NCBI RefSeq assembly: GCF_026343955.1
Contig: NZ_JAPKNI010000007.1
Coordinates: forward strand, 62,001 to 126,000
DNA length: 64,000 bases
Source: Kaistia defluvii
Lineage (GTDB): Bacteria; Pseudomonadota; Alphaproteobacteria; Rhizobiales; Kaistiaceae
Direction of reading: 5' to 3'
A program made the position numbers and the translations under genes. The notes under the pieces were generated by a model. It saw only the letters and a list, made by a program, of their open reading frames with translations, was not told the origin of the DNA and did not search any database. Of this stretch, positions 56,925 to 59,833 are shown piece by piece (position 1 is the first letter of the stretch; the number at the start of each line of letters is the position of its first letter).

Positions 56925-57377
56925 TCAGAGGCCGAATTTGCTGCGAAGGGCGACCATGGCGAGCGCGGCCTCGGCGGCGGCGCCGCCCTTGTTCTTCTCG
57001 CTGACGCGGGCGCGGGCATAGGCCTGCGCATCATTCTCGACGGTCAGGATGCCATTGCCGATCGCCAGCGACTCGATCACGGCCATGTCCATGATGGCGC
57101 GGGCCGACTCGTTGGCGACGATGTCGTAATGCGAGGTCTCGCCGCGGATCACGCAGCCGAGCACCACGAAGCCGTCATAGCTGACCTCGTCCTCATCCAT
57201 CGCGGCAAGCGCCATCGAAAGGGCCGCCGGGATCTCGAGCACGCCGGGCACCGAAACGCGATCGAAAGTCGCGCCGGCAGCCTCGATGGCGATCTTGGCG
57301 CCATTGAAAAGCTCGTCCGAGATCTCGTCATAGAAACGGGCGTCGATGACGAGGAGATGGGGGGCCGATTCGCTCAT
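56925..57377 (-). CDS. ribH: 6,7-dimethyl-8-ribityllumazine synthase
   Basis: 150 residues from the ATG at 57377. Motifs: [30 protein letters not shown] (substrate loop), [19 protein letters not shown] with the conserved GETSHYD and catalytic histidine, and [16 protein letters not shown]. It condenses the ribitylaminopyrimidine with dihydroxybutanone phosphate. It is separated from ribE by about 180 bp in which I see no FMN riboswitch. Confidence 0.94.
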
Positions 57378-57556
57378 GTTGAGGCTCTCACTTTGACCGG
57401 TCACCCGGATAGGAACGGGCGGCAGGTGAACCACGCGGGTCCATGCTGTGTAAAGGGAAAAGACGCCGCAGCCGCTGCCCTCGCCGCCTTGCCGAGAACT
57501 TGGCGCGCCGCTTTGGCGTGGCGTGGCCGCGTGACCCTGCCGTTTGAACTTCCAGC

Positions 57557-58168
57557 TTACGCGGCTTCCGTCAGCCGTGCCACATAGCGCGCCATCTGGT
57601 CGACTTCGAGATGCACCCGGTCGCCGATCTTGCGCGCGCCCCAGGTCGTGACATCCGGGCTCAGCGTATGCGGGATCAGCAGAACCGAAAACTGATTGCC
57701 CTCGACCCAGTTGACCGTCAGCGAGGTCCCGTCGAGCGCGACCGACCCCTTGGTGGCGATGAAGCGGGCCAGGCTTGGCGGCGCCTCGAAGACGAAGCGG
57801 GTCGTTTCCCCCAGATCCTCGCGGTTGACGATGTTCGCGAGGCCGTCGACATGGCCGGAGACCATATGGCCGCCGAGTTCGTCACCAATCTTCAGCGCCC
57901 GTTCCAGGTTGATCATCTCGCCCGCCTGCCAGTTGCCGACCTCGGTCAGCGCCAGGGTTTCCGGCGCAGCCTCGACGTCAAAGAAGGTGCGCCCGTTCGG
58001 CTGCGGATCGATCGAGATCACCGTCAGGCAGACGCCGGCGCAGGCGATCGACGCACCGATGGCGATCGAGGCCGCGTCATAGCGGCTGTCGATGGTGATC
58101 TTGTTGACGTCGTTGCGCCGCTCGACCGCCGCGACCTTGCCGACGTCGGTGATGATGCCCGTGAACAT
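57557..58168 (-). CDS. ribE: Riboflavin synthase, alpha subunit
   Basis: 203 residues with two lumazine-binding domains. MFTGIITDVGKVAAVE is the diagnostic start, GASIACAGVCLTVISID and LGGHMVSGHVDGLANI close domain 1, and KGSVALDGTSLTVNWVEG and IPHTLSPDVT belong to domain 2. It converts two lumazine molecules into riboflavin. It begins 2 bp after ribD. Confidence 0.94.
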   Translation of the reverse strand: MFTGIITDVGKVAAVERRNDVNKITIDSRYDAASIAIGASIACAGVCLTVISIDPQPNGRTFFDVEAAPETLALTEVGNWQAGEMINLERALKIGDELGGHMVSGHVDGLANIVNREDLGETTRFVFEAPPSLARFIATKGSVALDGTSLTVNWVEGNQFSVLLIPHTLSPDVTTWGARKIGDRVHLEVDQMARYVARLTEAA

Positions 58169-58170
58169 GC

Positions 58171-59310
58171 TCAGACTGCCCTTTCGTAGCGAACCATTCG
58201 GTCTTCGCCGAGGCGCGCCTCCTCGACGCGGCGGAAGCGCGGACTGCGCTCGATCGCCGAGAGCGCGCCTCCGGCCAGCGCCCGGACGCCATCCGGCCCG
58301 ACCACCACCGGCGCGTGAAACAGGACCACCTCGTCGAGCAGGCCGCGCCCCAGCAGCGAGGCCGCAACCTTGGCGCCGCCCTCGGCGAGCAGGCGCGTGA
58401 CGCCGCGCTCGGCCAGCAGGCGCATGGCGGCCTCGATATCGATGCCGCCCGAACCCGTGCCGACCGGCAGGACCTCGACGCCGGCATCCAGCAAAGCCTG
58501 GCGATGGGCAAGCGGCGCCTCGGAACTGCAGACGACCCACAGCGCCGTGTCGGACGCGCTCTTCACCAAAGACGATTTTGGTGAGAGCCGTGCCTGGGTA
58601 TCGAGAACGACGCGGATCGGCGAGTGCGCCCGCAATCCGGGGACGCGGACGATAAGGCTCGGATCGTCAACCATGGCGGTTCCGATGCCGATCAGCGTCG
58701 CGTCCGCCTCGATGCGCATCGTCTGCAGGCGGGCAAAAGCCTCGCGGCCCGACACCAGCATCCGCTCTCCCGTCAAGCGGCCGATCATGCCATCGGCGGA
58801 AACCGCGAGTTTCAGCGTAATGTGCGGCCGGCCATGGCTGAGCACGGAAATCGGCCCGGCCACCAGCCGTCGCGCGTCGTCGCCGAGGATGCCAGTGGTC
58901 ACCGCGATGCCGGCATCGCGCAATTGCGCATGGCCTCGTCCCGCTATGCGTGGATCGGGGCTCTCCAGGGCGCTGACGACCCGCGCCACGCCCGCCTCGA
59001 TCAGGGCGGCGACATCGGAAGGGCCATTGCTGGAATCCGGCGACGGCTCGAGCGTGGTGTAGACCGTCGCGCCGCGCGCGGATTCGCCCGCCATGGCGAG
59101 CGCCTCGATCTCGGCGTGGGTCACCCCGCCGGCCGAGGTGGTGCCCCGGCCCAGGATGACGGGCTCATCGCCCAGATGGCCGATGACGAGCGCGCCGACC
59201 GGTGGCGCGGGCGCCGTCGTGCCCAGATTGCGCCGGCCGAAACGGAGCGCCACGGCCATGAGCCGGCGGTCCATCTCGGCATCCGCGTTGGCTGCCCGCT
59301 CTGTCGCCAT
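58171..59310 (-). CDS. ribD: RibD-like protein: intact reductase domain, deaminase domain without zinc cysteines
   Basis: 379 residues from the ATG at 59310. The C-terminal reductase domain looks complete (TLKLAVSADGMIG, ADATLIGIGTAMVDDPSL, IRVVLDT, LLAEGGAKVAASLL). In the N-terminal deaminase domain H65 and E67 (THAE) remain, but PCSHHGRTPPC of E. coli RibD is replaced by PSPDSSNGPSD, leaving S90 and D99 where the zinc cysteines should be. PNPNVG is also changed to PAPPVG. The deaminase half is therefore predicted inactive. It sits in the normal nrdR-ribD-ribE context. Confidence 0.88.
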   Translation of the reverse strand: MATERAANADAEMDRRLMAVALRFGRRNLGTTAPAPPVGALVIGHLGDEPVILGRGTTSAGGVTHAEIEALAMAGESARGATVYTTLEPSPDSSNGPSDVAALIEAGVARVVSALESPDPRIAGRGHAQLRDAGIAVTTGILGDDARRLVAGPISVLSHGRPHITLKLAVSADGMIGRLTGERMLVSGREAFARLQTMRIEADATLIGIGTAMVDDPSLIVRVPGLRAHSPIRVVLDTQARLSPKSSLVKSASDTALWVVCSSEAPLAHRQALLDAGVEVLPVGTGSGGIDIEAAMRLLAERGVTRLLAEGGAKVAASLLGRGLLDEVVLFHAPVVVGPDGVRALAGGALSAIERSPRFRRVEEARLGEDRMVRYERAV

Positions 59311-59353: not shown

Positions 59354-59833
59354 CTAATCCCGTTCGTCGTCTTCCGGCAGATCCTGAGACGAAAGCTCGT
59401 CCAGCACGGCGGAGAAGTCCTTGGCCTCGCGGAAATTGCGATAGACCGAGGCAAAGCGGACATAGGCGACGTCATCAAGGCCCTTCAGCGCCTCCATGAC
59501 ATAGACGCCGATCTGCTCGGCATTGATCTCGCTCTCGCCGCTGCTTTCGAGCTGGCGAACGACGCCGTTGATCATCCGCTCGACACGATCGGGATCGACC
59601 GGCCGCTTGCGCAGCGCGACCTGGACCGAACGCATCAGCTTGTCGCGATCGAAGGGAACGCGCCGGCCGCTCTTCTTCAGAACGATCAGCTCCCGCAGCT
59701 GAATCCGCTCGAAGGTCGTGAAACGACCGCCGCAATCCGCGCAGACCCGCCGCCGCCGGATGGACGTATTGTCCTCCGACGGGCGGGAGTCCTTCACCTG
59801 CGTGTCGTCGCTACCGCAATAGGGACAACGCAT
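59354..59833 (-). CDS. nrdR: Transcriptional repressor NrdR
   Basis: 159 residues. The zinc ribbon has MRCPYCG (C3, C6) and CADCGGRF (C31, C34) with RRRVC between. The ATP-cone follows: [21 protein letters not shown] and [21 protein letters not shown] (cores [14 protein letters not shown] and [12 protein letters not shown]). It represses ribonucleotide reductase genes according to nucleotide state. It lies 12 bp after glyA. Confidence 0.95.

What the first reader, a model, noticed from the sequence alone, without database searches (positions are those of the whole stretch)
59014..59118. RibD whose deaminase domain has lost its zinc cysteines
Seen directly: the zinc/active-site motif PCxxxxxxxPC is PSPDSSNGPSD (S90 and D99 replace the cysteines), and PNPNVG is PAPPVG. 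Known: RibD deaminases need His and two Cys to hold zinc. The reductase half and the gene context are normal. Inference: this RibD performs only the reduction, and the pyrimidine deamination must come from another enzyme, or riboflavin synthesis differs here. The loss spans several active-site residues, so it is not a single sequencing error.
Basis: partly seen in the sequence, partly recalled or inferred. Interest (0 to 1): 0.72.

Follow-up and report, generated by a model that had tools for sequence, protein, structure and literature searches.

The report
Riboflavin enzyme missing its deaminase half
In the bacterial genus Kaistia, the two-step vitamin B2 enzyme RibD has lost the active site for one step but kept the other under strong selection, so another, still unidentified enzyme probably carries out the lost step.

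Summary
The window comes from a Kaistia-type genome. Its RibD (window 58174-59310, minus strand) has Ser90 and Asp99 where the zinc cysteines belong. All 14 genomes held for the genus lack both cysteines; the 14 other family members held keep them, as do 100 of 100 RibDs fetched from elsewhere in the order. Other pocket positions fixed in the relatives (N35, H65, E67, H92) are lost or scattered. The domain's scaffold and the reductase half stay under purifying selection, as do RibE and RibB. So this looks like a live, reductase-only RibD with a pseudo-deaminase domain, a bacterial parallel to plant PyrR. No second RibD deaminase was found. Two amidohydrolase deaminases, encoded beside a gene that may be the riboflavin formamidase BrbF, are candidate replacements: a Kaistia-specific 8-oxoguanine/isocytosine-deaminase paralogue (13 of 14 Kaistia, 0 of 14 relatives) and a cytosine-deaminase homologue (14 of 14, but also 11 of 14 relatives). 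Kaistia terrae lacks the first, and the BrbF identity is uncertain, so the replacement is not shown. New variant of a known kind.

The parts
58174..59310 (-). ribD coding sequence (379 aa; stop codon 58171-58173)
   Evidence: NCBIfam TIGR00326 225 bits against cut-off 156
58861..59274 (-). degenerate deaminase domain, about residues 13-150 (pseudo-deaminase scaffold)
   Evidence: 30 of 55 positions fixed in the 14 relatives change in at least one Kaistia; AF2 model keeps the fold
59206..59208 (-). residue 35, Ala in place of the Asn of PNPxVG (14 of 14 Kaistia)
59110..59118 (-). residues 65-67, HAE motif: still present here; His lost in 4 of 14 and Glu in 7 of 14 Kaistia
59041..59043 (-). residue 90, Ser in place of the first zinc Cys
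59014..59016 (-). residue 99, Asp in place of the second zinc Cys
58183..58833 (-). reductase domain, about residues 160-376, conserved
   Evidence: NCBIfam TIGR00227 134 bits (below its 150 cut-off), TIGR01508 116 bits (below 186)
57557..58168 (-). ribE (riboflavin synthase), start codon 2 bases after the ribD stop
   Evidence: NCBIfam PRK09289 220 bits against 155
56925..57434 (-). ribH (lumazine synthase)
   Evidence: NCBIfam TIGR00114 98 bits against 84.6
59354..59833 (-). nrdR-like upstream neighbour
   Evidence: ORF; named from recall of the family, no search

Best explanation
Kaistia RibD is a monofunctional reductase. Its N-terminal domain has become a pseudo-deaminase that still folds and is kept as a structural part, while zinc binding and the deaminase chemistry are lost. 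The riboflavin pathway is alive, so 2,5-diamino-6-ribosylamino-4(3H)-pyrimidinone 5'-phosphate (or its reduced, ribitylamino form, if reduction comes first) is deaminated by a separate enzyme. The loss of the deaminase site and the conservation of the reductase are shown at sequence level; the inactivity, the scaffold role, the running pathway and the separate enzyme are inferred. The best lead for that enzyme is an amidohydrolase-superfamily deaminase of the cluster around a brbF-like gene: the Kaistia-specific 8-oxoguanine/isocytosine-deaminase paralogue or the cytosine-deaminase homologue of the same cluster. The substrate is a 2-amino-4-oxopyrimidine, the ring of isocytosine.
For: Both zinc cysteines are absent in 14 of 14 Kaistia and present in 14 of 14 other family members and 100 of 100 fetched order members. 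The balance of constraint is reversed: within Kaistia mean identity is 65% for the deaminase and 75% for the reductase domain; in the relatives it is 70% and 64%. Deaminase dN/dS exceeds reductase dN/dS in 7 of 9 Kaistia pairs but 2 of 6 pairs of relatives. Reductase dN/dS is 0.05-0.18 in the nine Kaistia pairs. RibE (0.05-0.12) and the RibB part (at most 0.05) are constrained in six Kaistia pairs, one with K. terrae. The AF2 model (pLDDT 90, pTM 0.87) matches B. subtilis RibG at TM 0.83-0.84. No other RibD deaminase was found. Plant PyrR, per PMC9678776 (passages read), is a reductase with a deaminase-like domain lacking catalytic residues. For the candidates: a paralogue of the 8-oxoguanine deaminase family (590 bits against cut-off 532) sits in 13 of 14 Kaistia and 0 of 14 relatives, within 500 bases of the brbF-like gene in 12 of those 13 (in G012 both lie near the ends of different contigs). 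Enzymes of this family deaminate isocytosine (PMC6186785, passages read).
Against: No activity was measured. The deaminase domain still has dN/dS of 0.07-0.24 in Kaistia, no higher than in the six pairs of relatives (0.17-0.42); only its ratio to the reductase domain has changed. I read that as a retained scaffold, but some unknown function is not excluded. K. terrae (G013) has no match to the 8-oxoguanine-deaminase paralogue at E up to 1e-60, although its RibD is degenerate too. The cytosine-deaminase homologue is in 14 of 14 Kaistia but also in 11 of 14 relatives, so its presence does not track the loss. The brbF-like gene is only 42-45% identical to three rhizobial BrbF proteins, against 40-44% for two other rhizobial creatininases, and with more sequences its grouping with them has support of only 0.62 (0.89), so the link of the cluster to riboflavin is uncertain. 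An FMN riboswitch, before a DMT-type transporter in the loci read (13 of 14 Kaistia, 1 of 14 others), would also suit an importer.
Confidence: 0.73

Rival explanations
1. Kaistia no longer makes riboflavin: the genus imports it through the FMN-riboswitch transporter, and RibD is on its way out.
For: FMN riboswitch in 13 of 14 Kaistia and 1 of 14 other family members (at most 78 candidates scored per genome); the gene downstream in the three loci read is a DMT/EamA-type transporter (NCBIfam TIGR00950 below its cut-off). The RibA half of RibBA has no zinc cysteines either.
Against: Reductase domain, RibE and RibB remain under strong purifying selection in the Kaistia pairs tested, K. terrae included; the decay is concentrated in the deaminase pocket. 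The zinc-free RibA half is shared by the relatives with intact RibD.
Confidence: 0.14
2. A resident enzyme of the cytidine-deaminase fold (TadA, cytidine deaminase, or a guanine-deaminase-like protein) does the step by moonlighting.
For: A TadA-like and a CDA-like protein are the only PF00383 members found in the 100%-complete genome G009 (classed by motif).
Against: Both kinds occur in relatives that kept the RibD deaminase; the 191-aa deaminase of the own genome has no look-alike in several Kaistia, for example G009. TadA acts on tRNA and CDA on the 4-amino group (recalled).
Confidence: 0.1
3. The RibD domain still deaminates by a zinc-free or altered-zinc site, with Asp or Glu at position 99.
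For: Position 99 is Asp or Glu in 11 of 14 Kaistia; purifying selection on the domain persists and is no weaker than in relatives.
Against: Position 90 is S, T, A, M, V or P; His65 is lost in 4 of 14, Glu67 in 7 of 14, His92 and Asn35 in 14 of 14. The only identical Cys/His/Asp/Glu residues in all 14 are D10, E12, D14 and E88, and acids at 116, 132, 144 and 145; none is at the lost positions. Position 99 begins a helix in the model, so an acid there can be a helix cap.
Confidence: 0.03
4. The pathway starts from a xanthine nucleotide: opening the imidazole ring of XTP or XMP gives the pyrimidinedione directly, so no deaminase is needed.
For: Chemistry only. The first ring-opening enzyme of BrbF-type bacteria is unidentified (PMC9478397, parts 1-3 of 6 read).
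Against: No sequence evidence; it would require a changed substrate for the front enzymes.
Confidence: 0.04

Closest known systems
Bifunctional bacterial RibD/RibG (TIGR00326; B. subtilis RibG 2b3z/4g3m, E. coli RibD 2g6v)
   Same: Full-length two-domain architecture, overall fold (TM 0.83-0.84 to RibG), conserved reductase domain, rib operon context
   Different: Zinc cysteines, the Asn of PNPxVG and other deaminase-pocket residues lost
Plant PyrR (pyrimidine reductase with a deaminase-like domain)
   Same: Reductase that keeps an N-terminal deaminase-like domain lacking catalytic residues (PMC9678776, passages)
   Different: Plants have a separate PyrD, a RibD homologue with working deaminase; no such partner was found in Kaistia. 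The genus-restricted loss points to an independent origin
8-oxoguanine/isocytosine deaminase (NCBIfam PRK08203; PDB 3hpa, 7ww2)
   Same: Candidate replacement P0002 belongs to this family by score and its histidine and aspartate motifs are the same as in P0003
   Different: The Kaistia paralogue has its own substitutions (for example W80, absent from the 30 other copies in the tree) and a longer loop; a nucleotide substrate is untested
BrbF formamidase branch of riboflavin synthesis (Sinorhizobium, Brucella; PMC9478397)
   Same: A creatininase-family gene in 27 of 28 family genomes and a RibBA whose RibA half has lost its zinc cysteines
   Different: Orthology to BrbF is unsettled; the paper says that all known pathway proteins were found in S. 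meliloti, whereas Kaistia lacks the RibD deaminase site

Membership tests
Bifunctional RibD (TIGR00326) | Score above the curated family cut-off over the full length | tested here: met
   225.4 bits against 156.35, residues 18-372
Bifunctional RibD (TIGR00326) | Zinc-binding deaminase site (His-x-Glu plus two Cys) | tested here: not met
   C90S and C99D here; 0 of 14 Kaistia keep either Cys
Bifunctional RibD (TIGR00326) | Intact reductase domain | tested here: met
   46 of 59 positions fixed in the 14 relatives unchanged in all 14 Kaistia; dN/dS 0.05-0.18
Bifunctional RibD (TIGR00326) | Deaminase and reductase activity | not testable with these tools
   needs purified protein
PyrR-type reductase with pseudo-deaminase domain | Deaminase-like domain retained but lacking catalytic residues | tested here: met
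PyrR-type reductase with pseudo-deaminase domain | Separate cytidine-deaminase-fold PyrD partner | tested here: not met
   No second RibD deaminase in 14 of 14 genomes; G009 left with TadA-like and CDA-like only
PyrR-type reductase with pseudo-deaminase domain | Common descent with plant PyrR | not tested
   no plant sequences used; the genus-restricted loss argues for independent origin
8-oxoguanine deaminase (candidate partner P0002) | Score above curated cut-off | tested here: met
   590.3 bits against 532
8-oxoguanine deaminase (candidate partner P0002) | Acts on the riboflavin pyrimidine intermediate | not testable with these tools
   needs assay
BrbF formamidase (Kaistia creatininase-family gene) | Orthology to Sinorhizobium BrbF | tested here: inconclusive
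   support for a group with three rhizobial BrbF (flanked by MarR-like and CobW-like genes) 0.89 in a first tree, 0.62 with eight more sequences; identity 42-45%

The most novel reading that the evidence does not exclude
In Kaistia the riboflavin pyrimidine deaminase step has been taken over by an enzyme of an unrelated fold: an amidohydrolase (TIM-barrel) of the 8-oxoguanine/isocytosine or cytosine deaminase family, encoded beside the brbF-like gene. One line of it duplicated at the base of the genus, freeing the RibD deaminase domain to decay into a scaffold.
Probability: 0.26. Interest if true: 0.8.

Novelty: new variant of a known kind. Interest (0 to 1): 0.62.

Why it matters
Family models call this protein bifunctional RibD, yet one of the two activities cannot work as described in a whole genus. 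It exposes a missing enzyme in a central vitamin pathway, gives a bacterial counterpart of plant PyrR, and offers a clean comparative system (14 genomes without the site, their sister genera with it) for finding the replacement and for asking why dead domains are kept in flavin enzymes.

Tried and rejected
Second RibD or stand-alone RibD-type deaminase: not found. The weak PF00383 hits of about 330-360 aa in five Kaistia genomes are absent from the own genome and were not followed.

Second GTP-cyclohydrolase-II homologue (13 of 14 Kaistia and G027): in the three loci read it is followed by a DUF1688-like gene and looks like URC1/URC4 uracil catabolism (names recalled), so it was set aside as the replacement. 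FMN riboswitch target: a DMT/EamA-type transporter in the three loci read, RibN-like by recall, not a deaminase. The RibBA neighbourhood showed no deaminase-like gene by eye, from the first 130 residues of the called ORFs of three of the six loci fetched (L342, L344, L345).

BrbF: a first tree held only 11 of the 14 Kaistia brbF-like genes and looked firmer than it is. On checking I added G001, G003 and G006 (72-89% identical to the own gene), three more relatives (57-61%), G022 (46%) and one rhizobial paralogue; support for the group with rhizobial BrbF fell to 0.62. For that reason the best explanation was lowered from 0.75 to 0.73 and the novel case from 0.30 to 0.26, and the auxotroph rival raised from 0.13 to 0.14.

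Literature: the listings of searches in the held open-access library (each shows only its best rows) gave no paper on Kaistia RibD or on a bacterial RibD without deaminase site. One search was too loose to be informative. Subscription papers are not covered.

Searches were turned back for wrong coordinates; 65 was repeated as 69, 70 was not repeated. The report itself was handed back once for checking and once for its format.

Full report
The observation. The ribD gene lies on the minus strand at window 58174-59310, 379 residues. Residues 88-100 read EPSPDSSNGPSDV. Aligned to B. subtilis RibG and a Klebsiella RibD, Ser90 and Asp99 stand where the two zinc cysteines belong. The Asn of PNPxVG is Ala35. 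His65 and Glu67 are still present in this protein. ribE begins two bases after the ribD stop, and ribE and ribH follow as named by NCBIfam.

How far it goes. The window's assembly has 14 genomes in its genus group and 28 in its family group. In 14 of 14 Kaistia both cysteines are gone. In 14 of 14 other family members held (Bauldia, Prosthecomicrobium pneumaticum and others) both are present. In the named collection the 80 best matches hold 9 Kaistia loci and 71 others; 71 of 71 keep them (some are the same genomes). From the order, 111 genomes were searched and 107 had a RibD match, 103 of them outside the family. I fetched 100 of these 103 (G036, G084 and G087 dropped) and all 100 keep both cysteines: 99 by the motif search, one (L413) by reading it. 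The loss therefore maps to the base of one genus, as far as sampled. Within the genus the pocket decays in different ways: position 90 is S, T, A, M, V or P; position 99 is D, E, V, A or S; His65 is kept in 10 of 14, Glu67 in 7 of 14, Asn35 and His92 in none.

The protein is not dying. Of the positions fixed in the 14 relatives, 30 of 55 in the deaminase domain change in at least one Kaistia, against 13 of 59 in the reductase domain. Mean identity within Kaistia is 65% for the deaminase and 75% for the reductase domain; in the relatives the order is reversed, 70% and 64%. Reductase dN/dS in nine Kaistia pairs is 0.05-0.18 and deaminase dN/dS 0.07-0.24; in six pairs of relatives the values are 0.08-0.67 and 0.17-0.42. 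So the deaminase domain of Kaistia is not looser than that of relatives in absolute terms; what changed is the balance, the deaminase value being the larger in 7 of 9 Kaistia pairs and 2 of 6 pairs of relatives. I read the remaining constraint as a scaffold role (inference). In six Kaistia pairs, one with K. terrae, RibE has 0.05-0.12, the RibB part at most 0.05, and the brbF-like gene 0.04-0.17. The AlphaFold2 model (28-row alignment, pLDDT 90, pTM 0.87) keeps the RibD fold, with TM 0.83-0.84 to B. subtilis RibG. A model cannot show a metal.

Is there another deaminase of the same fold? P0001 finds one RibD per genome at E up to 0.001, apart from reductase-only fragments in G007, G012 and G027. 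The PF00383 family finds four places in the own genome at E up to 0.001: a TadA-like, a 191-aa deaminase, a CDA-like protein and RibD itself, and one weak place at E 0.34. In G009 (100% complete) it finds two even at E up to 10, TadA-like and CDA-like by motif. The class names rest on motifs, not on curated cut-offs, and a deaminase of another family would be missed.

The front of the pathway. In the 26 family genomes with a GTP-cyclohydrolase-II match, the RibA half of the RibBA protein lacks the zinc cysteines, whether RibD is intact or not (the cysteine motif is recalled). This fits the BrbF branch described in Sinorhizobium and Brucella (PMC9478397, parts 1-3 of 6 read), where RibBA is dispensable, a creatininase-like formamidase is essential and the ring-opening enzyme is unknown. 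A creatininase-family gene occurs in 27 of 28 family genomes. One group of it, present in 14 of 14 Kaistia, is the nearest I found to three rhizobial BrbF proteins flanked by MarR-like and CobW-like genes. The evidence is weak: identity to those is 42-45% for Kaistia, against 40-44% for two other rhizobial creatininases, and support for the group is 0.89 in a first tree but 0.62 with more sequences. I therefore call it brbF-like, not BrbF.

Candidates for the missing step. Beside this gene lie amidohydrolases. P0002 and P0003 score as 8-oxoguanine deaminases (590 and 622 bits, cut-off 532). P0002-type genes (81-100% identity) occur in 13 of 14 Kaistia and 0 of 14 relatives. They form a clade with support 0.997 among 43 of the 45 matches; two distant ones were dropped. 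They lie within 500 bases of the brbF-like gene in 12 of 13; in G012 both lie near the ends of different contigs. Some of their positions differ from all 30 other copies in the tree (W80, I83, A253, an inserted residue 158); S78 is shared with one other copy. The older copy, P0003-type, is in 10 of 14 Kaistia, and 9 of 14 relatives have one relative of it. Enzymes of this family deaminate isocytosine (PMC6186785, passages), the ring present in the riboflavin intermediate. Against it: K. terrae (G013) has no match at E up to 1e-60, its brbF-like gene sitting directly next to a RidA-like gene, although its RibD is degenerate. A second candidate, P0004 (cytosine deaminase PRK07583, 647 bits against 403), is in 14 of 14 Kaistia including K. 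terrae, but also in 11 of 14 relatives. Either could be the replacement; neither is shown. The cluster also holds transporter, RidA-like and oxidase genes, so it may be a nucleobase-uptake and breakdown cluster with no part in riboflavin synthesis.

Rivals. Auxotrophy with import: an FMN riboswitch occurs in 13 of 14 Kaistia and 1 of 14 relatives (which scored at most 78 candidates per genome) and precedes a transporter gene in the three loci read; the intact constraint on RibD reductase, RibE and RibB argues against it. A moonlighting TadA or CDA, a zinc-free RibD deaminase, and a xanthine-nucleotide start of the pathway remain possible with lower weight.

Relation to the known. Plants split RibD into PyrD and PyrR, and PyrR keeps a deaminase-like domain without catalytic residues (PMC9678776, passages). 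Kaistia RibD works like PyrR by its anatomy, but arose inside bacterial RibD and has no PyrD partner that I could find. It is a member of the RibD family by score and descent and fails that family's deaminase site. Hence: new variant of a known kind.

Noticed in passing
L163 and 25 further family loci (L145-L170): The RibA half of RibBA has no zinc cysteines in any of the 26 family genomes with a match, yet in six Kaistia pairs it is strongly conserved (dN/dS 0.01-0.09): a second zinc-free domain in the same pathway, of unknown function.
   Followed up: partly
L179, L181, L186 (FMN riboswitch loci): An FMN riboswitch precedes a DMT/EamA-type transporter gene in the three loci read; the riboswitch was found in 13 of 14 Kaistia but in only 1 of 14 other family members.
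   Followed up: partly
L171, L173, L174: 13 of 14 Kaistia carry a second GTP-cyclohydrolase-II homologue; in the three read it keeps cysteines and is followed by a DUF1688-like gene, resembling the URC uracil-catabolism pair (names recalled).
   Followed up: no
L238 1887-4865 and homologous loci: 8-oxoguanine-deaminase-like genes fall into four lineages in Kaistia; K. terrae (G013) has no match at E up to 1e-60.
   Followed up: yes
   Followed up: no
G021, G023: Two family members with intact RibD have no GTP-cyclohydrolase-II match at E up to 0.001, although both have creatininase-family genes.
   Followed up: no
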